A stretch of 64,000 nucleotides of DNA from NCBI GenBank assembly GCA_031308135.1, contig JAHLJT010009436.1, forward strand, positions 216,252,786-216,316,785, in the 5' to 3' direction. The stretch is from Acheta domesticus (Eukaryota > Arthropoda > Insecta > Orthoptera > Gryllidae). The notes beneath the pieces were generated by a model. That model had not been told where the DNA came from, did not search any database, and saw only the letters and a program-made list of their open reading frames with translations. A program made the translations under genes and the position numbers. Each line of letters starts with the position of its first letter. The stretch's first letter is position 1. Below are positions 11,137-64,000 of the stretch, in pieces.

Positions 11137-11500
11137 CATTGTGTTCTTCATCCCACACCTCCGACTCAATTCACTCCACACTACAGACGTCCCACCGATC
11201 CGTCTTCCCCGTCATGCTCTTCATCTCACACCTCCGACTCAATTCACTCCACAATACAGCTGTCCAATCGATCCGTCTTCCCCATCGTGTTCTTCATCCC
11301 ACACATCCGATTCAATTCACTCCACACTACAGCCGTCCCGCCGATCCGTCTTTCCCATCGTGCTCTTCCTCTCACACCTCCGACTCAATTCACTCCACAC
11401 TACAGACGTCCCACCGATCCGTCTTCCCCGTCATGCTCTTCCTCTCACACCTCCGACTCAATTCACTCCACACTACAGCCGTCCCATTCGTTTCTACATC
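11137..11500. repeat. 73-bp tandem repeat, about 4.6 copies
   Basis: The anchor CCGAYTCAATTCACTCCAC recurs at 11161, 11233, 11307, 11380 and 11453, giving steps of 72, 74, 73 and 73 bp. Units share the intervening ACACTACAG, CGTCCCACCGATCCGTCTT and TCTTC motifs with scattered substitutions. Because 73 is not a multiple of three and no unit contains a stop, all three forward frames stay open. That explains long frames here without a gene. Confidence 0.9.
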
Positions 11501-12780: not shown

Positions 12781-13009
12781 GGACAAAAGATATGCGCGGT
12801 GGGCGAGGTGCAGGGGCGGGGCGGTCGTAGAGGATGGGGGAAACGGTGCAGGTGGGAAGGCAAGACGGGCAGTGAGGGACAGGCGGGTTGGCAGGGCGGG
12901 GAAGGGCCCGAACCGGGGGGAGGGGATGGCGAGGAGAGGCAAGCGGAGCGGGCAGGGCGGGGAGAGCAGGGCGAGGTGGGCAGGGCAAGAATAGGTGGAT
13001 AGGGCAAGG
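12781..13009. repeat. G-skewed degenerate lead-in to the 14-bp minisatellite
   Basis: GGGGCGG, GGGCAGGG and GGGAGGGG variants without a fixed period; it grades into the regular array. Confidence 0.55.
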
Positions 13010-13500
13010 ATAGGTGGGCCGGGCAGGGCGAGGTGGGCAGGGCGAGATGGGCAGGGCAGGGCGAGGTGGGCAGGGTAGGGATAGGAGGGCAGGACAGGGC
13101 GTAGTGGCAGGGCAGGGCGAGGTGGGCAGGGCATAGATAGGTGGGCAGGGCGAGGGGGGCAGGGCGAGGTGGGCAGGGCGAGGTGGGCAGGGCGAGGTGG
13201 GCAGGGCGAGGTGGGCAGGGCGAGGTGGGCAGGGCAGGGCGAGGAGGACAGGGAAGGACGAGGTGGGCAGGGCGAGGTGGACGTGGCAGAACGAGGTGGG
13301 CAAGGCAGGTTGCGCGAGGCGGGCTGGGCGAGGCGGGCTGGGCGAGGCGGGCTGGGCGAGGCGGGCTGGGCGGGGCGGGCTGGGCGAGGCGGGCTGTGCG
13401 AGGCGTGCTGGGCGGGGCGGGGTGGGCGAGGCGGGCTGGGCGAGGCGGGCTGGGCGAGGCGGGCAGAGCAAGGCGGGCAGAGCGAGGCGGGCAGGGCGAA
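13010..13500. repeat. 14-bp minisatellite array (GTGGGCAGGGCGAG family)
   Basis: Two sub-arrays share one 14-bp framework: GTGGGCAGGGCGAG-type units to about 13300, then GCGGGCTGGGCGAG-type units from about 13315 to 13490. The top strand is almost free of T and very G-rich. The 378-aa and 349-aa minus-strand readings (Pro-Ala-Arg-Leu repeats) and several plus-strand Gly-Arg readings are products of this array. Confidence 0.9.
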
Positions 13501-13720
13501 GAGGGGCGGGCGGGATGGACAGAACGGGGCGGGCGAGGGGGGACGGGCAGGGTGGGCGGGACTGGGTGAGGTGGGGTGTGACAGAGCGGGGTGAGATAAG
13601 GCGGAGTAGGGAGACTGTTGGGGTGGGTGGGGTCTGTGGGGCGGTTGCTGCGCGCGGGGTGGGTGATCGTCCGCTTCGATGGACGCTGCAGGTCGGGAGG
13701 TCGGCAGCGCGTGCATAAAA
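13501..13720. other. Decaying edge of the G-rich array
   Basis: GGGGCGGGCG and GGTGGGGT variants lose periodicity toward 13720. No gene. Confidence 0.45.
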
Positions 13721-45619: not shown

Positions 45620-45852
45620 AGATAAACTAGAAGTTTTATAATTTGTTTTATTATATTTAAAGAAGAGAGAAAAGTGTGTGCGAGAGAATTAAGTGAACTC
45701 TTCACCTCGGGGGCAATGGTGAGAAGCACGATGCATGTGCAAATTATAGGTGTAGAAGCTTGCGTGAGATTGAGCAAACAATGAAGCGAAGGTTTGGTGA
45801 GGAAAGTCGAATATTGAAATAAGCGAGTGACAGAAGATTCCAGGCTGAGGCT
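45620..45852 (-). repeat. Left arm of a long inverted repeat (unbroken copy)
   Basis: The reverse complement of this segment matches 47173-47352 plus 48350-48421 at roughly 90% by eye, including CACCTATAATTTGCACATG and TTTAAATATAATAAAACAAA. It preserves the uninterrupted GTTCACTTAATTCT site where the other copy carries an insertion. It could be one of two opposed copies of a dispersed repeat, or the terminal repeat of one larger element. Confidence 0.85.
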
Positions 45853-46419: not shown

Positions 46420-46925
46420 CGTCCTTTGCTTGGGCGCACGCTGCACCGCGGCTGTCCCCTGGCTGCGTGCTCTGCCGTGAAAGGCGGACACGCGAGCCTA
46501 TTCAAGACACGGCGCGGCGCTGCTCCCAGCGGCTAGGCGGACGGCGCCTCGCCGCCCCGCCCCGCCCCGCCTCACATTGCAAATCCCGCCTTGGATGCTG
46601 CGGAGCAGGGCGGAGCGGGGAGGGGTAGAGATAGCGCGCAGAGACGGGCAGTAGAGGTGGTGCCGAGGAGGGGCGATGGCGGAACCCAGCAGCGATGAGT
46701 GACGCTGTGGGGAAGGCAGTGGAGATGTCTCAGAGAGTGGCGACGGCCGTGAGGCAATGACAGCGATGGGGTTGGAGATGGCGCAGCTGAAGAGGCGGCG
46801 GCGGAGACGGGCTGCGTTGGTGACAGTGGTGGAGGTGACAGCGGTGGTGACAGTGGTGGCGGCGGGGGCAAGGGTATCGACAGCAACAGCGGCGGTGGCG
46901 GTGGCGATGGCGGCGACAGTGACGG
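46420..46925. other. CpG-rich island
   Basis: GC-rich with CCCCGCCCCGCCCC near 46553-46572 and G-rich DNA to 46925. Overlapping frames are domainless. Confidence 0.45.
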
Positions 46926-47119
<194 letters not shown>

Positions 47120-47172
47120 CGGCAGCGGTTTACGTAGTAATAATTAAGGTGGAGGCGATCGGATCCCGTGAT

Positions 47173-47352
47173 AGCCTCAGCCTGGAATCTTCTGTCACTC
47201 TCTCATTTCAATATTCGACTTTCCTCGCCACGTCGCTCTGCGACGCTCGGAGACTTCGCTTCATTGTATGCCCAATCTTACGCAAGCTTCGACACCTATA
47301 ATTTGCACATGTATCGACCTTCTCACCATTATCCCCGAGATGAAGAGTTCAC
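47173..47352 (+). repeat. Right arm of the long inverted repeat, first part
   Basis: Matches the reverse complement of 45689-45852 with one extra segment of about 20 bp (near 47229-47250). It stops abruptly at GTTCAC, exactly where the piggyBac-like insertion starts. Confidence 0.85.
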
Positions 47353-53080: not shown

Positions 53081-56000
53081 CCCGGAGGCTGTGTCTCAGA
53101 AAGAAGTGTCTTCAACTATTCATTTGCAGTATTAAACGGGAGGATCGATATTTAAACTTTCTGGCCTGCGGAAATAGAAAGAAGTATCGCGTCGTTGAAA
53201 CATTTATGCATAAAAGTAATAATGATGCAATGTTGTGCATTTTGATAAAATAGATTAGAGTAGAAAGGAACATACATATAAATTACCGAAAATTACCAAT
53301 GAGAAAACTAGCAATACCTAAAAAAAATTGTCTTGATTTTATTTGCAATTCCGTCTTTCTTCTTTCGTCGTTGTTATATCACAACAATTATAAATTTGTT
53401 CTTAACATTAAATAATTTCTTCAAGTAATTTACGGAATCATTTCCTTGTCATCTGATACGATGGCAATGTCATTTCGACGTAATTACGTAATATCTGCGT
53501 TAGTGTGTTAATATGTGCGATACTTCACACTTTTTTATAATCAATGTTCATCGGACCATCCCATGGGGTATATTAGAAAAAGCAATTTAGATATTCTCGG
53601 AAATTTGAGGGAGAAATTAAAAAAAAATACCAGTCTTAATTGAAGTGTTTTAATACAATATTTTTTGAAATTTGAAATGCAATAGCTTCCATAGCATAAA
53701 TCGCGCAAAGAAGGGAACTTACCATCTCATATTTTATTGTTGTTGCATGAAACAAAGTATTCAGCGAACATATTCAACCCAATTTTCTGCAAAATCGTAC
53801 TGCTATGAGCTTAGTACCTTTTATTAGACGACCAACTTTGCCGCTTGGTAAATAACTCTTATCCACCGCTAAGTTTCAACACAATTTCAATTACACGCGA
53901 AAGTTCAATTTAGAGTCAACCTTCAATTAAAAGTACACAACAATACATATTTTTTAAAGGTTAATGTTTTTTATTCCTTTTGAATGAGAAGCAAAGATGA
54001 TGCACAAGCAAACAAGAGAACACAATACCGTGTAAGAACAAAGGTGTTTTCCTTCGCGCTAATTAAAATATATGATCAAGTTTAATGTGCAAGTTTTGTG
54101 TTTTCTATACAACCCACAACTTGTCTCAGAGGGCGCAGCTTTTCGAATAACAGGAAATTATGTAAGCACACGAAGAATAGTTATTTTATTATGAAATGAA
54201 GTTTGGAAACTAACAAAAGGGGAAAACTGAATATGTTATGATGTCTTAATTCCACTTTGTTTTATGAGATTGCACACTGGACCTTTATAAACTGTTAAAA
54301 TTTCCTTCACACATCTTAACGAATGGAGGAAATGTAATCAACTCTTTCTTAATTTTGCTACGTTTTAATGTAACTGAACGTTACAAATTTATTTGAAACT
54401 GTAACCAATAGTGCTACAACAGCACAACTATCTCGCATTATTTCTTACTTGGCATTTTTCTTGGAGTTTAACGACAATGGAACATGTGCCATTCTTTTAA
54501 CCATTCTTTACACTACTCGGGGGCAAATTTTAACACATTTTTGAAGTATTTGCGAGAACATTTTCAAAATGTTGAGGATTAATGTAAAGTACCCCCCAAA
54601 ATCATAACACCCATTTTAAACTCACATGAGAGCTACTTCAAATCGATCGAGGTATATCAATTCTGGAGAATATCGTTGGAAAGGTTTAGGTGCTAGCATT
54701 GACCATAGACAGACGGACAAATAGACGTTTCACCGTAAATAGATTTTTTGGTTTCAAGGACCCACAAAAACAAGGATTCTGACTACTCAATGTATTAGTG
54801 GAACTAATTGACTATATACAGGAACAATATTTATTCACTTTTTACGAGGGCCAAGTAATAAGAGTTTTCCCTCGAAAAATCGACGTTTTTCGGTCCACGA
54901 TCACACTTTCTCTTCTTACGAAGTAAAGCGGAAAAGTAAAAATGTATTCAAGTTGTACGAGATATATTAAGGAAATAAAACAGGCAAATAATATTAAGTA
55001 AATTAGATGTTCCTAAGAGGATTAACCTAAGTAATTTTCTAGCGTAATTGTAAAAGTAAAGTGTCAATTTTGGATCCATATGTATGAAAAAAAATTGTAT
55101 GAAAAAAATGTATGAATGAAACATTGTATAAATACTGAAGATGGTTGGGAAGGTGTATGCTCGCTAAATAAACTCATTCGTCAAAGAGAGATTGCTTTTG
55201 CAGGACGAAATATGAAACCCGAAGACGTCCCTCTCGTAAAGGATGTGAGGCAATTTCATACTCCGTAACCACGTGTGTTTACGCTGGGTACACAGACGAG
55301 GTCATGCTCTCCTAGGCACAACGTACAGCAGCATTACTTGTGTCCACAAACTCGGTTAAAGCTCACTTCACAGCCGTAACTCAGCTCCTCAAAAGTAGAT
55401 CAGAATGTAATTAAACTCTAAGAACACTCGAATATTTTTAACATAACTCATTAAAAGAAATATAACGTCATAAAATGGAATTTTCCGAAATCCTTCTTTC
55501 CAAGATGCCGAGTAAAGGATTTTGCACATGTAATAATATTAAAAATTCTGAATGCATTATGAACGAATTTTCCTAACGGTAATTAATAACAATAATAAGT
55601 TTAAAATACTCGGACTCTCCTAAAAACTTTAATATGTTTAGAATGTATAAAAACTCTCTAATTAGGTTATTTAATGGCCACATGATTTTTGGTAAGAAGA
55701 AGCGCCAAATACACTTTTCTGTAAAATTAAGAGTAAATTACTTATATTGCTCTACCTTTCAGCATCTCAACTATATCAAATCTCATCGTACACATGCCTT
55801 TTCCTTTGAATTTTTCACGAGCCTTGATACATTAAATGTATTTGAACGAGAAATAATTTTAAAAAAACTATTTTTGGTAAACTTTTTTAACTTGTCATTT
55901 CTTCCATCTTCTGTTTCTAACCATTCCACCATAAAATATTCTACCTCATCCCAGTAAAGTGATGTATCTACTCTAGATTTAACTTCAACATTTGCCTTAT

Positions 56001-56157
56001 ACGACACGAATATAGTCTCATAGCGTAGTGATAAAATTCAATTTTTCAAAAGAATTATATCGCCGTCTCATGCGAGATGCCATAGCCGCGTCAAGAGCGT
56101 CCCTACGAACGGACAGTCCAAACAAGCGCGCCTCCCGTGCGTACGACGCGACACGTG
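53081..56157. other. AT-rich non-coding DNA up to the retroviral insertion
   Basis: Three kilobases without recognisable genes, tandem arrays or transposon ends. The last seven bases before the element (ACACGTG, 56151-56157) alternate purine and pyrimidine. Confidence 0.5.
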
Positions 56158-56232
56158 AGTCATGTTGGCACGACGAGTCACCGCCAGCAAGGGCATATCA
56201 GTATTGATACTGCAAATAGCCCGAGCCTTTCA

Positions 56233-56528
56233 CCCTCGGCGGCGACGAGGCCTGGCGGCGCCTGAACGGCGCCAAAGCGGCGCCCGGACTCTGCTCCCCG
56301 GCGCCAACTCACATGCATGAGCTGTCACCCTTGGCTGGGTCTTGGACCCTGCACCCTTGTGCCAGCTCACCCCGACGACGCCCTCGGCGGTGACGAGGCC
56401 TGGCGGCGCCTGAGCGGCGCCAAAGCGGCGCCCGGACTCTGCTCTCCGGCGCCAACTCACATGCATGAGCTGTCACCCTTGGCTGGGTCTTGGACCCTGC
56501 ACCCTTGTGCCAGCTCACCCCAAACGAC
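56233..56528 (+). repeat. 148-bp tandem duplication in U3 (5' LTR)
   Basis: CCCTCGGCGGYGACGAGGCC begins at 56233 and again at 56381, and nearly all bases agree over the 148-bp unit. Each unit carries several GGCGCC palindromes and one CATGCATG octamer (56312 and 56460). Duplicated U3 blocks in retroviruses commonly act as enhancers; here that role is inferred. Confidence 0.9.
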
Positions 56529-56630
56529 GCCTGACCGGCGTCCGACCTCTGCACCCTGGCGCTGGCCCGGACCCACGTGACCAGTGCGGAAGGCGCCCCC
56601 ACCACGGGACATCTTCCCCCACTAAAAACT

Positions 56631-56677
56631 AATAAATAACCCTGGAGCTAGGAGTGGCCAGCTCACTATAGCTCCAG
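56631..56677 (+). promoter_or_regulatory. LTR core promoter (TATA-like box and likely start site)
   Basis: AATAAATA at 56631-56638 is the best TATA-like box, and an initiator-like TCACT lies about 30 bp downstream (56663-56667). A perfect 9-bp inverted repeat (CTGGAGCTA at 56642-56650, TAGCTCCAG at 56669-56677) encloses the presumed start site and would place a hairpin at the RNA 5' end. Confidence 0.55.
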
Positions 56678-56700
56678 ACGTGTAACTGCGCTCTGCGAGG

Positions 56701-56706
56701 AATAAA
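56701..56706 (+). terminator. AATAAA polyadenylation signal (5' LTR copy)
   Basis: AATAAA lies about 36 bp after the presumed start site and is followed by a T/G-containing stretch (TTCTGTCTGTC). R is therefore short. The functional copy is the one in the 3' LTR at 63966. Confidence 0.7.
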
Positions 56707-56828
56707 TGTAATTGAATTCATTCTGTCTGTCATTCGTATACGCCTCCTGGTGGATCTGCATGGCATAGCGGTCCGAACCTGCGACCGCATCTCTACCTTG
56801 AAACCTTCCTGCAGTGGAGATACTTAAC

Positions 56829-56846
56829 TGGGGGCTCAGCCGGGAT
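56829..56846 (+). other. Primer binding site, tRNA-Pro type
   Basis: TGGGGGCTCAGCCGGGAT is complementary to the expected 3' 18 nt of a tRNA-Pro (ending CCA) and differs at two positions from the tRNA-Pro site of gammaretroviruses. It marks where minus-strand DNA synthesis would start and fixes the LTR edge. The exact host isoacceptor cannot be checked here. Confidence 0.8.
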
Positions 56847-57020
56847 CGGCAAGCGTCTACCCTTGCCAGGTTGACAACGTGCTGTTGGGAGACGGCAACC
56901 GACAGCCTCATCACGAGAGGCCTTTCATCCGCCGCCCGACCTGCCTGCTGCCGATCCGCACCGTGCTACGCCGGGACACCAGGAACGAGACGTACGACAG
57001 AAGTCACCACACATCGGAGG

Positions 57021-57049
57021 ATGCTGCCACTTATCATCTTTTCTAACCT
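57021..57049 (+). CDS. env: Candidate env leader exon (signal peptide start)
   Basis: An ATG followed by mostly hydrophobic codons runs nine codons plus two bases to a GTGAGT donor. The acceptor AG at 61893-61894 opens the env frame in the matching phase, and the residues after the junction are also hydrophobic, as in a signal peptide. On unspliced RNA the same ATG gives a ten-codon upstream ORF ending at the TGA inside the donor. Spliced env RNAs are known for errantiviruses; this particular junction is inference. Confidence 0.6.
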
Positions 57050-57055
57050 GTGAGT
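57050..57055 (+). promoter_or_regulatory. Splice donor for env RNA
   Basis: GTGAGT matches the insect 5' splice consensus exactly from the first to the sixth intron base. It is the strongest donor-like site I noticed in the leader. Confidence 0.65.
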
Positions 57056-57241
57056 GAAATAACCATCAGAATAACTTTATTAGTTTGAACACCCGAGAAA
57101 ACAGTGCAATTTGAGTAATCACTGCTCGTCTTTTTGCCTATATTCGTTCTCGTAGGATTTATCTGTAAACCCAAGTTCAAACGAATTTGATTCATTTATT
57201 ACCACGTCTGTTAAAAATTTAAACTTAAATTCGATTCAAGT

Positions 57242-58444
57242 ATGGCATTCAACGATATAATTTCAAAATTTGAGTATGCACATATCCAGCTGTTGCCAGA
57301 ATTCGATGGCACTGCATCATGTAGTCTGGATTATTTCCTAGCAAGGAGCGAGTCGTTTTTAAGAAATTTTCAAAGACCTGAAGGAGCACCGCAAGCAGAA
57401 TTAATTAACGAATTTTTTTTCAATGTAATAAAGTCCAAGTTAAAAGGGGATGCACGGAGCATTTTAGACGTAGAAGCCAACTCGAGTTATAATAGACTCA
57501 AAGAAAAACTTATGAGGAAATATGGTGATATGAAGGACGAGAGGCTGCTACTTAAAGAAATTTCTAATTGTTACCAAAAGCTAAGTGAACCGTATGCTGA
57601 TTATCACGAACGATTATGTTCCTTGGTCTTGCGCTATACAAATCTTTGCAAAATCAATTACCAAGCAGGTATTTTAGGAATGAAGTTAAAAGAAATCGAG
57701 GAGCTAGGGTTAAATACATTTAAATCAGGGCTTTTAGAACCATATCGTTCTTACCTTCGTTATTGTCAGGTCGCGGATCTCGATAGTGCCCTTAGAAGCT
57801 GCCGGTCATATGATAACGAAAAAGCATATGACAAATATATAGATCAGTTGAGGTTTTCCCACAAACAACCTCATCCATCATATAGGTCCAATTATGAACA
57901 AGTGCCACTACCAAACCCTTTTGTTGCACCAATTTTCTCCCCACGGCAGAGACCTCAGAACCAGAATTTCTCACGTGCGCCTATGCAAGGAACATCTCAG
58001 GCATTCAGTAATCAGAATCGGATGACCCCCCTTCAGGCGCCCCAGTATAATCACCCGCCGGATACGCGGCAAGCCGCACAAATCTCGCGACCGACAGGTC
58101 AGATCGCGCTGCCTCCGAGGCCGGTAGGACAGGGCGCTCGCCCTTATCCAACCCCCACCAACATAGGTAGGCGTTTCACCCCACAAGACCCTTCTAGGTT
58201 CCCAAGACCGATGTCAGGCGTTTCCACAATCAGAGGAAATCTAAACACTCACTATGAACCGGAGGATGAATTTTCGTATTTATCCAATACTTGCGAAAAT
58301 GCGGAAGATTCATACGATATTGTCAATGATTATGAGTACTGCCCGGAAAATGATCAAAGTTATTTGCCAACAGATCAATTTGATATAGATGAAACTAATC
58401 AGCAGGATTTTCACAAGGCCCAGTCGTCCAGGTCGAAGACCTAA
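57242..58444 (+). CDS. gag: Gag polyprotein
   Basis: A 400-aa frame with a good start context (A at -3, G at +4), intact from ATG to TAA. The N-terminal half (to about residue 200) is a helical capsid-like region beginning with a LLPEFDG motif near residue 17, typical of gypsy/errantivirus Gag. Residues about 220-330 are rich in Pro, Gln, Arg and Asn, consistent with RNA binding. The tail (about 335-400) is acidic and tyrosine-containing. No CCHC zinc knuckle is visible, as is usual for errantiviruses. It would form the intracellular particle. The last 46 nt overlap the pol frame, which lies one base back, so Gag-Pol would need -1 frameshifting. Confidence 0.9.
   Translation: MAFNDIISKFEYAHIQLLPEFDGTASCSLDYFLARSESFLRNFQRPEGAPQAELINEFFFNVIKSKLKGDARSILDVEANSSYNRLKEKLMRKYGDMKDERLLLKEISNCYQKLSEPYADYHERLCSLVLRYTNLCKINYQAGILGMKLKEIEELGLNTFKSGLLEPYRSYLRYCQVADLDSALRSCRSYDNEKAYDKYIDQLRFSHKQPHPSYRSNYEQVPLPNPFVAPIFSPRQRPQNQNFSRAPMQGTSQAFSNQNRMTPLQAPQYNHPPDTRQAAQISRPTGQIALPPRPVGQGARPYPTPTNIGRRFTPQDPSRFPRPMSGVSTIRGNLNTHYEPEDEFSYLSNTCENAEDSYDIVNDYEYCPENDQSYLPTDQFDIDETNQQDFHKAQSSRSKT
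58399..58444 (+). promoter_or_regulatory. gag-pol overlap (-1 frameshift zone)
   Basis: The pol frame is open from 58399, just after a TAA, and gag ends at 58444. No textbook X-XXY-YYZ slippery heptamer is evident. The GATTTTCA run (58406-58413) is the most slippery-looking spot. Confidence 0.5.
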
Positions 58445-59267
58445 ACAGTATATATAACGCGCCACAGTTACCTTTTGTCACTCTGCACGGACTGAAAATC
58501 TTAATTGATAGTGGCGCGTGTAATTCAATGATGAATCCGGATGTCGCCCACTCGATTTTTCCAGAATACCTCTTTAAGGAGTCGTTTTGCATCCAGTCAG
58601 TGCACGCCCAAACCTTAGGAGATAATAATGTACAATTTCCGATTTTTTCCGAGTATGAAATAAAAACTCCAGTTAATTTCAGGGTAATGAGGTGGCATCG
58701 GTATTTTGACGCCTTAATTGGCACGGCTGATTTTGTCAAACTAAAAGCCAAGATTGATTATAATGAAAATACAGTTACTTTCGGAGATAGGGTAATACCA
58801 TTTTATATGTATTCGCCGTACAAACAAAATATGATTCAGGAAAACCTAAACTCACTCTCCACAAAAGTTCCTGTGAACATACGGCAGGGTGATGTATATG
58901 TGCCTCACTTCAAACACAATGGAGTTTATTTTCCAGATGCTATCTTGCGTGCCGAAAATTACTATGTCTCTTACCCCGCCAGATTAGAAGCAGATTTTGA
59001 GCAACCGGTACTCGCTGAACCGCTCGACAGTATAAATGTTCAGAACTTAGAGATGAACTCCATTACTAATAAAGATGTCAGTGAATACCTTCGAACCCAA
59101 CATGTCAATGATATTGAACGGGAAGCCCTAACCGCGTTGTGTTCCGACTATTCGGACATATTTTACTACCCTGGATGCGATCTCTCATTCACACATACGG
59201 TAAAACACTACATTCGTACTACGGATGAAGAGCCAGTATACCATAAAAGTTTCCGCTACCCCCCCCC
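58399..59267 (+). CDS. pol: Pol, protease and linker part (frame 1)
   Basis: An aspartic protease with the LIDSGA active site (Asp codon 58507-58509), preceded by a hydrophobic strand as in retropepsins. It would cleave Gag-Pol. About 240 codons follow, ending in the acidic-basic linker that precedes gypsy RTs (KHYIRTTDEEP). The frame is then lost at a run of nine C (59259-59267): the RT continues in frame 2, so the net change is +1. The frame-1 reading beyond the run (to 59334) is out of register. The first ATG is at 58528, inside the protease, so initiation must come from Gag by frameshifting. Confidence 0.85.
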
Positions 59268-60097
59268 ACTTGAAGGAAATTATAGATCAAGAAGTAGAGA
59301 AACTTTTAGAACAGGGCGTAGTCACATCCAGTGAATCACCCTACCGAAACCCTGTGTGGGTTGTGCCAAAGAAGCCTGACGCTTCAGGGCAAAAGAAGTG
59401 GCGTTTGGTAGTAGACTTTAGGACTCTAAACCAAAAGACGATTGAGGATAAATACCCTGTCCCAAAAATCGAGGAAATACTTGATAACCTCGGCAAGTGC
59501 CAATATTTCAGCACTTTAGATCTCGCCCAAGGGTTTCATCAGATAGAACTAGATGACAGATCCATAGAGAAAACTGCCTTTACTGTAAATAATAGACACC
59601 TCATGTTCAACAGAATGCCATTCGGATTAAAAAACGCCCCAGCAACGTTCCAGCGCGTGATGGACAACGTCCTCCGCCCTTATCTGTATAAATTCTGTTT
59701 CGTTTACTTCGATGACATCATTGTTTTCAGTAAGTCGCTTGAAGAACACATTCAACATCTCGCATTAGTATTCCAAAAGCTTAGAGAAGCAAATCTTAAA
59801 ATTCAACTAGATAAGACGGAGTTCTTACATAAAGAAGTGGCCTTCTTGGGTCACATTGTTTCTAGGGAAGGCGTGCGACCAAATCCAGACAAAATCAGGG
59901 CAGTTAAAGAATACCCCACCCCCAAAACAGTTAAGGAAATTAAACAATTTCTCGGGTTAGCGGGATTTTATCGAAAATTTATTAAAGATTTCGCCAAGAT
60001 CGCACAACCCTTAACAAGATGTCTAAAGAAGGGATCAATCATTGATACTGAAAACACAGAATACAAAAATGCTTTTGAAAATTTAAAACTCTTCTAA
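59268..60097 (+). CDS. pol: Pol, reverse transcriptase part (frame 2)
   Basis: RNA-dependent DNA polymerase domain with the classical gypsy order: NPVWVVPKK, WRLVVDFRTLN, FSTLDLAQGFHQI (first catalytic Asp), MPFGLKNAPATFQ, then YFDDI (59705-59719, two catalytic Asp), LGHIVS and the thumb/connection FLGLAGFYRKFI. It is intact as a domain. It is joined to protease by the C-run break upstream and separated from RNase H by a second break: the frame stops at 60095-60097 while the homologous sequence continues one base back. Confidence 0.95.
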
Positions 60098-61923
60098 TTA
60101 ATGCCCCAGTACTAAACTATCCAGATTTCGACAAACCGTTCACGGTTACTACCGATAGTTCAGGATACGCCATCGGGAGCGTACTCTCGCAAGGAGGGCA
60201 TCCCATTTGTTACTACTCACGCAGTCTCAATCCAGCTGAAAGGAAATTTTCCACTATTGAACGGGAACTGCTAGCTATCGTCGACTCTTGTAAACATTTC
60301 AAGCCGTATCTATGGGGGCGGCATTTTCAGATCGAATGCGATCACCGCCCACTACAATGGCTCTCCTCATTAAAAGATCCGAGTTCCCGCCTCTACAGAT
60401 GGAAGTTAAAAATCGGAGAATTTGATTTTACTATCAAATATGTAGAAGGAAAGACAAATTTTGTCGCTGACGCCCTGTCGCGGATAGAATTAAACGCGAA
60501 TGATGAAACACATTCCGTTATTGCTACCGCCGGAGATCACGACTATCTTGACGAAGCCGACAACCAAACAGTCCATTCAAATGAGGAGAATCCGATCTTC
60601 ACCTTGAAAATGTCCGAACGAAATTTGAACATGAACAAAAACCAAATTGTTGTAAAATACGGGACCTCTCCAAAAGTAATTGAGCAAAAACTTTTTAAAA
60701 AGAACACTCGGCATACACTAATCGTCACTCACGACGCCACTACCAAAGACTTTGAGAAAAACCTCCCCAAACTCATTACGCCTTCAAATAAGTATGCAGT
60801 TCACTTTGAGGATTTGACCCTCGAAATACCTTTTATTCGTTGTTGTCAAAAACTATTCACATCAGAACTAATAATCATTAGATGCAAAAAATTATTAGAA
60901 GATGTAGAAAATCCTGAAACCCAAAAACAGCTAATCTTACAGTACCACGCCATTAATCACAACGGTATCGTAGAAACAGTAGAACACTTACAGACTAGAT
61001 TCTACTGGCCCCACCTGAGGGAACAAATCCGTAACGTTATCAATCAATGCAATTCCTGTCAAAGAAATAAATACGAACGGCATCCCAACCAGGTAGAAAA
61101 CCAAGGGCCCATTTCAGCAGACCACCCGTTCGCTCAAATCCATATCGACACGTTTTGTTTCGAACAAAGCCGCATCCTCACTATCGTTGACGTTTTCTCA
61201 AAATACGGGCAAGGCTACATATTACCTAACGGGACGGCGCTTGCCGCTCTCAATCAACTAAGGATTTTCTTTTCACACCACGGTTTCCCCACCAACATCA
61301 CTCACGACCAGGGAGGAGAATTTGAAAACCGGCTCCTTCAAGAATATTGCAAATCATTGAACATTAATTATCACGCTACCACTCCTCTCAATTCGTCATC
61401 AAACTCTCCCGTGGAAAGGCTTAACTCCACGCTACTCGAAAAACTACGCATCCTCAGAGACAATGATAAGTTCACGCCTCTCGATCAACTCTTAGTAACC
61501 GCCATTCTCAATTACAATTCCTCCATTCACTCGACCACAAAACGTCCTCCATTCAACATCCTCTACGGCCCACACTATGACGCATTAGAGCATATTTTCA
61601 CACCAACCACCAGAATCGACGAATACCTTCAAAGGCAGAATGACCAACACCGCGCCTTACAAGAAACTCGCCCTGAACCAAACACCTCAAATTTCCAACA
61701 TAACTACGCAATAGGCGAAGTCGTTTATGTCCTCAACCCTAATACGCGAAATAAGAAATCCGGCAACCTGTATAATGAAGGCACTATAGTAAAGATTGAA
61801 GGAAATCGAATTCATTGCAAAATGAAAAACGGTAGAATGCATGTAAGGAATTTTCGGAACATAAAACCTAAGAGAAAATCTCTTCCTATTACAGGATCAC
61901 CGCAGGACTTGGTGCAATCATAG
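60091..61923 (+). CDS. pol: Pol, RNase H and integrase part (frame 1)
   Basis: RNase H follows the break with TTDSSGYAIG, ERELLAIV, DHRPLQWL and NFVADALSR, giving its four acidic residues. Integrase has an HHCC zinc domain (HAINH... CNSCQRNK) and a catalytic core with Asp in HIDTF, Asp in HDQGGEF and Glu in PVERLNS, exactly 35 residues after the second Asp. The C-terminal part is basic (RNKKSGNLYNEG). No internal stop occurs from 60091 to the TAG at 61923. The 3' end overlaps the env frame by 29 nt past the acceptor. An ATG at 60604 lies inside the protein and is not a real start. Confidence 0.95.
   Translation, partial: LLINAPVLNYPDFDKPFTVTTDSSGYAIGSVLSQGGHPICYYSRSLNPAERKFSTIERELLAIVDSCKHFKPYLWGRHFQIECDHRPLQWLSSLKDPSSRLYRWKLKIGEFDFTIKYVEGKTNFVADALSRIELNANDETHSVIATAGDHDYLDEADNQTVHSNEENPIFTLKMSERNLNMNKNQIVVKYGTSPKVIEQKLFKKNTRHTLIVTHDATTKDFEKNLPKLITPSNKYAVHFEDLTLEIPFIRCCQKLFTSELIIIRCKKLLEDVENPETQKQLILQYHAINHNGIVETVEHLQTRFYWPHLREQIRNVINQCNSCQRNKYERHPNQVENQGPISADHPFAQIHIDTFCFEQSRILTIVDVFSKYGQGYILPNGTALAALNQLRIFFSHHGFPTNITHDQGGEFENRLLQEYCKSLNINYHATTPLNSSSNSPVERLNSTLLEKLRILRDNDKFTPLDQLLVTAILNYNSSIHSTTKRPPFNILYGPHYDALEHIFTPTTRIDEYLQRQNDQHRALQETRPEPNTSNFQHNYAIGEVVYVLNPNTRNKKSGNLYNEGTIVKIEGNRIHCKMKNGRMHVRNFRNIKPKRKSLPITGSPQDLVQS
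61881..61894 (+). promoter_or_regulatory. Splice acceptor for env RNA
   Basis: A pyrimidine-rich TCTTCCTATT followed by ACAG ends at 61894, near the end of pol and at the start of the usable env frame. The phase agrees with the leader exon ending at 57049. Confidence 0.65.
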
Positions 61924-62365
61924 CTCAGCCAATAGAAACACCTGGTTTCTATGCAAATTTGGAGGGGCCGGCCGTCGTAATCCATGAATATCACAAATTC
62001 ATGTTTAATTTAAACCTCAGCAAACTTTCCTCATCCTTAGACGACGTCCAGGATACAACCGCCTCACTACTCTCGCAGGCAAACAATAGTTTCCCCTATC
62101 TTTTCCACGAACTTACAAGGGCGCTACAAGATACTCGTAACGAATTAAATAAGATTGCGACCCCCGAGCCGCGGCTACGAAGGGGCCTTATTAATGGTCT
62201 AGGCACGGCAATTAAATTCGTATCAGGAAATTTGGACCAAGATGATTTTGACAACCTAGAAAACCAAATTCACTCGCTACGGGTCAGCCGAACGGACGAA
62301 ATTGAACACATTAACAAGTTGATTTCCTTCAGTAACTCCATATCAAAAAATTTTATGATTCAATG
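61895..62365 (+). CDS. env: Env, N-terminal part (frame 3, interrupted)
   Basis: Envelope glycoprotein precursor, N-terminal portion. The frame is open from 61872 and has no ATG near its start, which fits a spliced start in the leader. After a hydrophobic start it has an RLRR furin-type cleavage motif (62172-62183), followed directly by GLINGLGTAIKF, the fusion-peptide-like signature shared by errantivirus envelopes and baculovirus F proteins. It ends at a TGA (62363-62365), because the frame is lost between about 62336 and that stop, probably in the A6/T4 run at 62345-62354. The product would act at the cell or virion membrane in entry. Confidence 0.85.
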
Positions 62366-63472
62366 AGCCAAATTCGCATGAATATGGGTATTATACAAAC
62401 ACTGTTACAAAAAAAGAACTTGGAAATAGGCATTCTAGAGCATGTGCAGTACATTTCACTGTGCCTCGATAAAATTCGCAAAATCATAACAACCATCGAA
62501 GAAACCGTCAGCTTATCGTTTAGTGGCATAACAAATGTGCAACTTTTCTCCAGAGAAGATGTAATTAACATTGCAACTCATTTACGTTCCATATATCCAG
62601 TGAAAGTGATTTTGAAAGCCGATCCATACCATCTGTACGAGAATTTGAAGTTTACAACAACACAAGTAATGATACTTGGTCACGAACTAATTGTAATTTT
62701 ATCCGTCCCAATAACGGACGGTAGTGACTTCCAACTGTATTCAGTCTACCCTGTTCCGTCTGACAACAATCTTATCTTAATTCCACCTGAAAGGTTTTAC
62801 TTACAGGGTTCTACGCCCAAATGGACAGGCACATCGTGCATTAAAGGCACCCAGCACTTTGTATGCAACCTCAAGAACGTACAAGCAAACCCCTGCAACC
62901 TGACTAATACTGCTGGCTGCAACTTCGCGTCTGCAACAAACAACATTAAACTGTTCGCTCTATTAACAAAAGAGCACTTGCTCTTTTCCAGCACTACTGC
63001 AGAAGTCATCCTTCAAACCTGTCCTCGATACCACACCGCCATCCAACTAAAAGGCACTAATATAATATCCACAAACGAGACGTGCCCCATTTCCACCATG
63101 GGAGCGACCCTCGAACCCCGGCCTACCAACTATACTCACCATTTCATTCTCCCGGAATTCAACGAAAAACCTAAGATAGATCATACAATCAAATTCCAGT
63201 TGTCTCATCTCAATATAGACAACTTAAAAACAAATCTGGAACCAATTAAGCCCCTTAGTGATCCCATTATCATTGTATCATCCCTTAGTTTTAGTGTTAT
63301 AATTGTACTAATCTGTATTATAATAGTTCTAGCACGTACACATCTATATGCACTTTATCTAAGATGTGTTAAGAAAACACCGCCAGTTGCCGGGGACGGC
63401 AACTCCGGAGATAGGGGGGAGGAGTCATGTTGGCACGACGAGTCACCGCCAGCAAGGGCATATCAGTATTGA
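62336..63472 (+). CDS. env: Env, C-terminal part with membrane anchor (frame 2)
   Basis: Continuation of Env after the frame break; the ATG at 62363 is internal. It contains a helical N-terminal stretch, a cysteine cluster (Cys at residues 159, 168, 178 and 186 counted from that ATG, then 220 and 241), several N-glycosylation motifs (NLT, NET, NYT) and one strong transmembrane segment (residues about 301-323, 63263-63331). A short cytoplasmic tail starts RTHLYALYLR. The reading runs through the polypurine tract and 50 nt into the 3' LTR, stopping at 63472, as in many retroviruses. Confidence 0.85.
   Translation, partial: LHIKKFYDSMSQIRMNMGIIQTLLQKKNLEIGILEHVQYISLCLDKIRKIITTIEETVSLSFSGITNVQLFSREDVINIATHLRSIYPVKVILKADPYHLYENLKFTTTQVMILGHELIVILSVPITDGSDFQLYSVYPVPSDNNLILIPPERFYLQGSTPKWTGTSCIKGTQHFVCNLKNVQANPCNLTNTAGCNFASATNNIKLFALLTKEHLLFSSTTAEVILQTCPRYHTAIQLKGTNIISTNETCPISTMGATLEPRPTNYTHHFILPEFNEKPKIDHTIKFQLSHLNIDNLKTNLEPIKPLSDPIIIVSSLSFSVIIVLICIIIVLARTHLYALYLRCVKKTPPVAGDGNSGDRGEESCWHDESPPARAYQY
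63411..63422 (+). other. Polypurine tract
   Basis: ATAGGGGGGAGG, which after its T is uninterrupted purine, lies directly against the AGT start of the 3' LTR. It primes plus-strand synthesis and fixes the LTR boundary. Confidence 0.85.
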
Positions 63473-63497
63473 TACTGCAAATAGCCCGAGCCTTTCA

Positions 63498-63793
63498 CCC
63501 TCGGCGGCGACGAGGCCTGGCGGCGCCTGAACGGCGCCAAAGCGGCGCCCGGACTCTGCTCCCCGGCGCCAACTCACATGCATGAGCTGTCACCCTTGGC
63601 TGGGTCTTGGACCCTGCACCCTTGTGCCAGCTCACCCCGACGACGCCCTCGGCGGTGACGAGGCCTGGCGGCGCCTGAGCGGCGCCAAAGCGGCGCCCGG
63701 ACTCTGCTCTCCGGCGCCAACTCACATGCATGAGCTGTCACCCTTGGCTGGGTCTTGGACCCTGCACCCTTGTGCCAGCTCACCCCAAACGAC
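63498..63793 (+). repeat. 148-bp tandem duplication in U3 (3' LTR)
   Basis: The same two-unit structure as in the 5' LTR, with units starting at 63498 and 63646. Because U3 of the 3' LTR templates both LTRs, the duplication predates this insertion. Confidence 0.9.
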
Positions 63794-63895
63794 GCCTGAC
63801 CGGCGTCCGACCTCTGCACCCTGGCGCTGGCCCGGACCCACGTGACCAGTGCGGAAGGCGCCCCCACCACGGGACATCTTCCCCCACTAAAAACT

Positions 63896-63942
63896 AATAA
63901 ATAACCCTGGAGCTAGGAGTGGCCAGCTCACTATAGCTCCAG
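63896..63942 (+). promoter_or_regulatory. Core promoter copy in the 3' LTR
   Basis: Same TATA-like box and inverted repeat as at 56631-56677. It could drive transcription into the downstream flank. Confidence 0.45.
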
Positions 63943-63965
63943 ACGTGTAACTGCGCTCTGCGAGG

Positions 63966-63971
63966 AATAAA
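63966..63971 (+). terminator. AATAAA polyadenylation signal (3' LTR, functional copy)
   Basis: Located 36 bp downstream of the presumed start-site position in the LTR; genomic and env RNAs would end shortly after it. Confidence 0.7.
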
Positions 63972-64000
63972 TGTAATTGAATTCATTCTGTCTGTCATTC

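What the first reader, a model, noticed from the sequence alone, without database searches (positions are those of the whole stretch)
56158..64000. Young endogenous retrovirus with a recognisable envelope gene
LTRs appear identical over 578 bp without an indel, gag is intact, and pol and env keep all diagnostic motifs. An env-bearing errantivirus of this completeness implies recent activity in the germ line, and its polymorphism between individuals would be likely.
Basis: partly seen in the sequence, partly recalled or inferred. Interest (0 to 1): 0.75.

Follow-up and report, generated by a model that had tools for sequence, protein, structure and literature searches.

The report
Young insect errantivirus with broken genes
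An ordinary gypsy-type endogenous retrovirus of an insect-like genome has inserted recently, but two of its three genes are out of frame as sequenced, so this copy need not be active itself.

Summary
The provirus is real and starts at 56158. The two LTRs are identical over all 578 bases visible in the 3' copy; the window ends inside that LTR, and the 5' LTR is probably 672 bp (56158-56829). LTR ends AGT...TAACT, a PBS-like site, a polypurine tract, gag, RT-RNase H-integrase and an F-type env place it with the errantiviruses (Metaviridae). Near-identical gag, integrase and env sequences occur in public collections. With identical LTRs this suggests sequencing/assembly error, or errors already present at insertion, more than later decay. 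I also found a likely ZAM/Beagle-type splicing signal: the leader's single ATG opens ten hydrophobic codons ending at a strong donor, phase-compatible with an acceptor before env. Copies in the assembly, 3' flank, target-site duplication and polymorphism could not be tested, because the genome tool did not complete. New member of a known kind; low to moderate interest.

The parts
56158..56829 (+). 5' LTR, probable extent 672 bp; begins AGT, ends TAACT
   Evidence: Start from the LTR comparison; end from terminal motif and PBS-like site and published errantivirus end motifs. The end cannot be checked against the 3' LTR, which is cut off.
56233..56531 (+). 148-bp tandem duplication (2 copies) in U3; both LTRs carry the same pair of copies with the same differences, so it predates this insertion
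56829..56846 (+). Primer binding site-like sequence beginning TGGGGGCTC; resembles a proline-tRNA site (recalled, not tested)
57021..57053 (+). Only ATG of the leader (56830-57241): a ten-codon hydrophobic mini-ORF (predicted env exon 1, ending at 57049)
57050..57055 (+). GTGAGT, predicted splice donor; only GTRAGT in the 412-nt leader (0.18 expected)
57242..58444 (+). gag, 400 aa, intact; no CCHC knuckle
58399..58444 (+). gag/pol overlap; pol in the -1 frame. GGATTTT encodes part of the Gag motif QDF, kept in 10 of 11 aligned Gag proteins (11 of the 13 were aligned); candidate slippage site (inferred)
58399..59334 (+). pol piece 1: protease by the IDSG motif and relatives (no Pfam match), up to the frame break at the C9 run 59259-59267
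59204..60097 (+). pol piece 2: reverse transcriptase (RVT_1, YFDD), up to the frame break in the A-rich tract 60065-60088
60079..61923 (+). pol piece 3: RNase H and integrase (HHCC, DD35E)
61893..61894 (+). AG of predicted env splice acceptor (pyrimidine-rich tract then TTACAG|G), phase-compatible with the donor
61872..62366 (+). env piece 1: N-terminal part, RLRR cleavage site (62172-62183) and the conserved region after it; ends at the frame break at A6T4 62345-62354
62336..63472 (+). env piece 2: rest of ectodomain, 3 N-glycosylation sequons, transmembrane stretch (from about 63266), tail running through the polypurine tract into the 3' LTR
63413..63422 (+). Polypurine tract, ten purines
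63423..64000 (+). 3' LTR, first 578 bases, identical to the 5' LTR; cut by the window end

Best explanation
This is a recently inserted provirus of an errantivirus (env-bearing gypsy/gypsy clade, Metaviridae) in an insect-like genome. Shown: LTR identity, domain order, F-type env, near-identical sequences elsewhere and the frame breaks. Inferred: genomic RNA primed by a host tRNA (proline-like site); Gag from full-length RNA; Pol by -1 frameshifting near GGATTTT; Env from an RNA spliced from a leader exon, which supplies the ATG and the start of the signal peptide, to an acceptor just before env. The three breaks in pol and env are either homopolymer errors of sequencing/assembly or defects already present when this copy was made. 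In the second case the copy would have needed proteins from an intact relative, and its own autonomous activity is not shown.
For: LTR identity. Pfam RVT_1, RNase H and integrase above their cut-offs, and Baculo_F above its cut-off for env piece 1. Among solved structures the RT piece matches 4ol8 (1.8e-60; Ty3 RT as I recall) and the Ty3-G Gag-Pol polyprotein 7q5b (1.4e-59) best. TED virus is among the 120 listed of 446 hits for pol piece 3. A 72-row tree places the window in an 8-row clade at 100/99; TED sits in another clade of the same 61-row group. LTR ends fit the published errantivirus rule AGT/AnT and a Zam-clade end TAACT. Leader mini-ORF and donor match the ZAM/Beagle arrangement described in PMC12992720 section 7. 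Relative P0066 runs as one protein through both pol break points; P0006 and P0008 run through the env break point. Env P0004 matches at 352/354 over the aligned part, integrase P0012 at 98% over 67%, gag in a cluster of 6 sequences on 7 contigs.
Against: Gag Pfam match is below its curated cut-off (20.6 against 24.1 bits), the 'Gypsy' env model is too (24.2 against 27.5), env piece 2 scores 15.9 bits for Baculo_F (cut-off 24.1), and the protease piece has no Pfam match. The tree lacks gypsy and ZAM and, because of its coverage filter, the closest partial relatives P0012, P0013, P0040, P0066 and P0078. The 5' LTR end is AGTCA, not the AGTTA of the Zam model. No RNA evidence for splicing or frameshifting. 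Host, 3' flank and target-site duplication not seen. LTR identity can also arise by gene conversion or assembly collapse. No DNA of a relative was obtained, so conservation of donor, acceptor and PBS is untested.
Confidence: 0.9

Rival explanations
1. The frame breaks are assembly or read errors in homopolymers, and the real insertion has intact pol and env.
For: All three breaks fall at C9, an A-rich cluster, or A6T4. The frame pieces tile pol and env with only these three frame changes and no further stop between them. The expected number of LTR differences, had three indels accrued after insertion, is 2.6-10.5 for assumed indel:substitution ratios of 0.2-0.05, so seeing none has P 0.07-0.00003.
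Against: No raw reads were seen. Real indels also favour homopolymers, and 35 runs of 5 or more exist in the internal region. PMC12992720 reports a shared real frameshift (adenine insertion) in env of rover variants, so env loss by such changes is known.
Confidence: 0.5
2. The breaks are real and were present at insertion: a defective copy mobilised by proteins of an intact relative.
For: Identical LTRs with three breaks argue against slow decay after insertion. The best-matching env protein P0004 begins at the same Met as the first Met of the window's second env piece, which could mean a shared break.
Against: P0004 may simply start there because its contig is short (1497 nt). A pol break affects the enzymes as a whole, so trans-mobilisation would need full complementation (inference).
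Confidence: 0.4
3. An old insertion whose LTRs were homogenised by gene conversion or assembly collapse.
For: Frame breaks present.
Against: Gag is intact and pol and env show no stop besides the three frame changes in about 6 kb.
Confidence: 0.07

Closest known systems
ZAM/Beagle subclades of Drosophila errantiviruses (PMC12992720: section 7 and passages read)
   Different: PBS looks proline-like (recalled); splicing only predicted here; no direct sequence comparison to ZAM was possible
TED virus (record named Ectropis grisescens TED virus, P0038)
   Same: RNase H-integrase homologous, 37% identity over 556 aligned positions
   Different: Falls in a different supported clade
Unnamed public proteins P0005-P0011 (env), P0132-P0143 (gag), P0013 (integrase)
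   Same: Env 42-49% identical, gag 43-65%, integrase 73%
   Different: Hosts not given; probably different elements, since near-identical matches (P0004, P0012) are far closer

Membership tests
Metaviridae (Ty3/gypsy) | pol order PR-RT-RH-INT | tested here: met
   RT, RH, INT by Pfam; PR only by the IDSG motif and alignment to relatives, no Pfam match; RT best hits include Ty3-G Gag-Pol
Metaviridae (Ty3/gypsy) | LTRs, 18-nt PBS, about ten-purine PPT (PMC7879559, read whole) | tested here: met
   identity of the priming tRNA not tested
Errantivirus | env gene downstream of integrase, F-type | tested here: met
   Baculo_F 26.1 bits over cut-off 24.1 for env piece 1; piece 2 only 15.9 bits. Relatives P0006-P0009 carry PF12259
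Errantivirus | LTR ends AGT/AnT instead of TG/CA | tested here: met
   AGT...TAACT against PMC5408687 and PMC3601003 passages; 3' LTR end not visible
Errantivirus | Monophyletic gypsy/gypsy clade in pol | tested here: inconclusive
   RNase H-integrase tree puts it in one 61-row group with TED and in an 8-row clade with P0014, which carries env sequence; gypsy and ZAM themselves were not in the data
Errantivirus | Env from a spliced RNA | tested here: inconclusive
   Signals present and phase-compatible; no RNA
Errantivirus | Palindromic-type target duplication (TATA, CGCG or ATAT; PMC5408687 passages) | not testable with these tools
   3' flank lies beyond 64000; 5' flank reads CACGTG, an alternating pyrimidine-purine stretch

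The most novel reading that the evidence does not exclude
A currently infectious errantivirus lineage that has switched to a proline-like tRNA primer, which I recall as typical of gammaretroviruses rather than fly errantiviruses, with a duplicated U3 enhancer-like block, and with intact copies circulating while defective ones are carried along.
Probability: 0.2. Interest if true: 0.4.

Novelty: new member of a known kind. Interest (0 to 1): 0.22.

Why it matters
Env-bearing gypsy elements are already known to be widespread in insects, and some are recently mobile (PMC13172572 passages). This adds one young lineage, for which the searches here gave no named close match, and a bioinformatic case of leader-exon env splicing. 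It also warns that 'motifs present' is not 'genes intact'.

Tried and rejected
Recent decay after insertion as the cause of the frame breaks: rejected as unlikely given zero LTR differences, though the estimate rests on assumed indel:substitution ratios. An LTR end at 56735: rejected, since that is only where the window cuts the 3' LTR. Other copies or relatives elsewhere in the window: none found (tblastn of 143 session proteins and blastn of the 5' LTR against 1-56156 at E 1e-3). Relatives with DNA in viral contigs (4 scans) and genome contigs (1 scan): pattern matches in some, none confirmed. Rfam at gathering scores and tRNAs in the window: none. Host identification: not achieved. Age in years is only indicative: at recalled insect rates of 3e-9 to 1.1e-8 per site per year, the 0.52% bound means under about 0.2-0.9 million years.

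Papers: PMC7879559 read whole; PMC12992720 section 7 and passages; PMC13172572 passages; PMC10243637, PMC5408687 and PMC3601003 passages; PMC3383448 and PMC13524379 not held. The other search results were seen as listings only. For proline-tRNA priming in errantiviruses, a search on four terms gave a single plant chromovirus paper, and one on two of three terms including tRNA-Pro gave 61 papers, 12 listed, not read on this point except PMC5408687 (no mention of tRNA in its text).

Full report
What is there. A provirus occupies 56158 to beyond 64000. The LTR copies are identical over the 579 bases that can be compared. One search lists no other direct repeat in 55000-64000, although one search shows a 148-bp duplication inside each LTR. 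The window ends inside the 3' LTR. The 5' LTR probably ends at 56829: it begins AGT and there ends TAACT, followed by an 18-base PBS-like site starting TGGGGGCTC. Published passages give AGT/AnT as the errantivirus ends (PMC5408687) and TAACT as one end found in the Zam clade (PMC3601003); that clade's usual start AGTTA differs from the AGTCA here.

Genes. Gag is one frame of 400 aa without a CCHC knuckle. Pol overlaps it in the -1 frame from 58399. At the overlap the DNA GGATTTT encodes part of the Gag motif QDF, kept in 10 of the 11 Gag proteins aligned (11 of the 13); this is a candidate slippage point by inference only. Pol holds IDSG, YFDD, HHCC and DD35E motifs and Pfam RVT_1, RNase H and integrase domains; the protease piece has no Pfam match. 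Env holds an RLRR cleavage site followed by a region shared with longer relatives, three sequons in its second piece and one strong transmembrane stretch; its first piece matches Baculo_F above the curated cut-off.

Pol is split over three overlapping frame pieces and env over two. Relative P0066 aligns through both pol junctions as one protein, and P0006 and P0008 through the env junction, so these are breaks and not gene boundaries. The alignments and frame overlaps place them at a C9 run (59259-59267), an A-rich tract (60065-60088) and A6T4 (62345-62354). No other stop interrupts the pieces. If three indels had accrued after insertion, 2.6 to 10.5 LTR differences would be expected for assumed indel:substitution ratios of 0.2 to 0.05, against none seen (P 0.07 to 0.00003). 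Read or assembly error, or defects inherited from the template RNA, therefore fit better than decay. I could not separate these two.

Expression. The 412-nt leader has one ATG, at 57021, opening a ten-codon hydrophobic frame. It runs into the leader's only GTRAGT donor, at 57050 (0.18 expected). A pyrimidine-rich acceptor, TTACAG|G, stands at 61893-61894 within the env frame. Two bases left over before the donor and one needed after the acceptor make the phases compatible, which one site in three would do by chance; five YAG sites lie in 61872-61960. [quoted passage not shown] The window's env frame has no Met before residue 44 of its first piece, which fits. This remains a prediction.

Relatives. 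Env: 8 proteins at E <= 0.001 of 2200 candidates; the best, P0004, is 352/354 over the aligned part, on a 1497-nt contig. Integrase: P0012, 98% over 67% of the query, first of 446 hits, 120 listed. Gag: a cluster of 6 sequences on 7 contigs that includes the window's own protein, then 12 others at 43-65%. So this element or very close kin has been sequenced elsewhere, and the 2% integrase difference suggests another copy or individual. Hosts are not named. In the RNase H-integrase tree (71 of 120 hits used, plus the window; the closest partial relatives fell to the coverage filter) the window joins an 8-row clade (100/99) with unnamed elements and a record labelled Erysiphe pulchra, probably an insect contaminant. 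TED falls in another clade of the same 61-row group.

Results against the reading. Gag and 'Gypsy' env Pfam scores are below cut-offs, env piece 2 scores only 15.9 bits for Baculo_F and the protease piece has no match. The assembly could not be searched. No relative's DNA was found. Target duplication, copy number and polymorphism are untested.

Verdict. It is a new member of a known kind.

Noticed in passing
56233-56531 and 63498-63796: 148-bp tandem duplication in U3; both LTRs hold the same two copies with the same differences, so the duplication predates the insertion.
   Followed up: yes
63413-63472: The env frame runs through the polypurine tract into the 3' LTR. The near-identical public protein P0004 leaves this frame at the G-run, so run length differs between sequences or one is misread.
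   Followed up: partly
56829-56846: PBS-like site looks like one for tRNA-Pro (recalled), unusual as far as I recall for errantiviruses; no host tRNA gene was available to test it.
   Followed up: partly
45693-45791 and 47254-47352: Inverted repeat, 99 nt, 90% complementary, arms 1462 nt apart, around a (GCGGCG)n tract at 46889-47128.
   Followed up: no
11145-11486 and 12950-13560: 73-bp tandem array (4.7 copies) and a G-rich 14/33-bp minisatellite in the host part.
   Followed up: no
P0014 (record labelled Erysiphe pulchra): A powdery-mildew record carries an errantivirus-like pol with env sequence, probably insect contamination of that genome.
   Followed up: no
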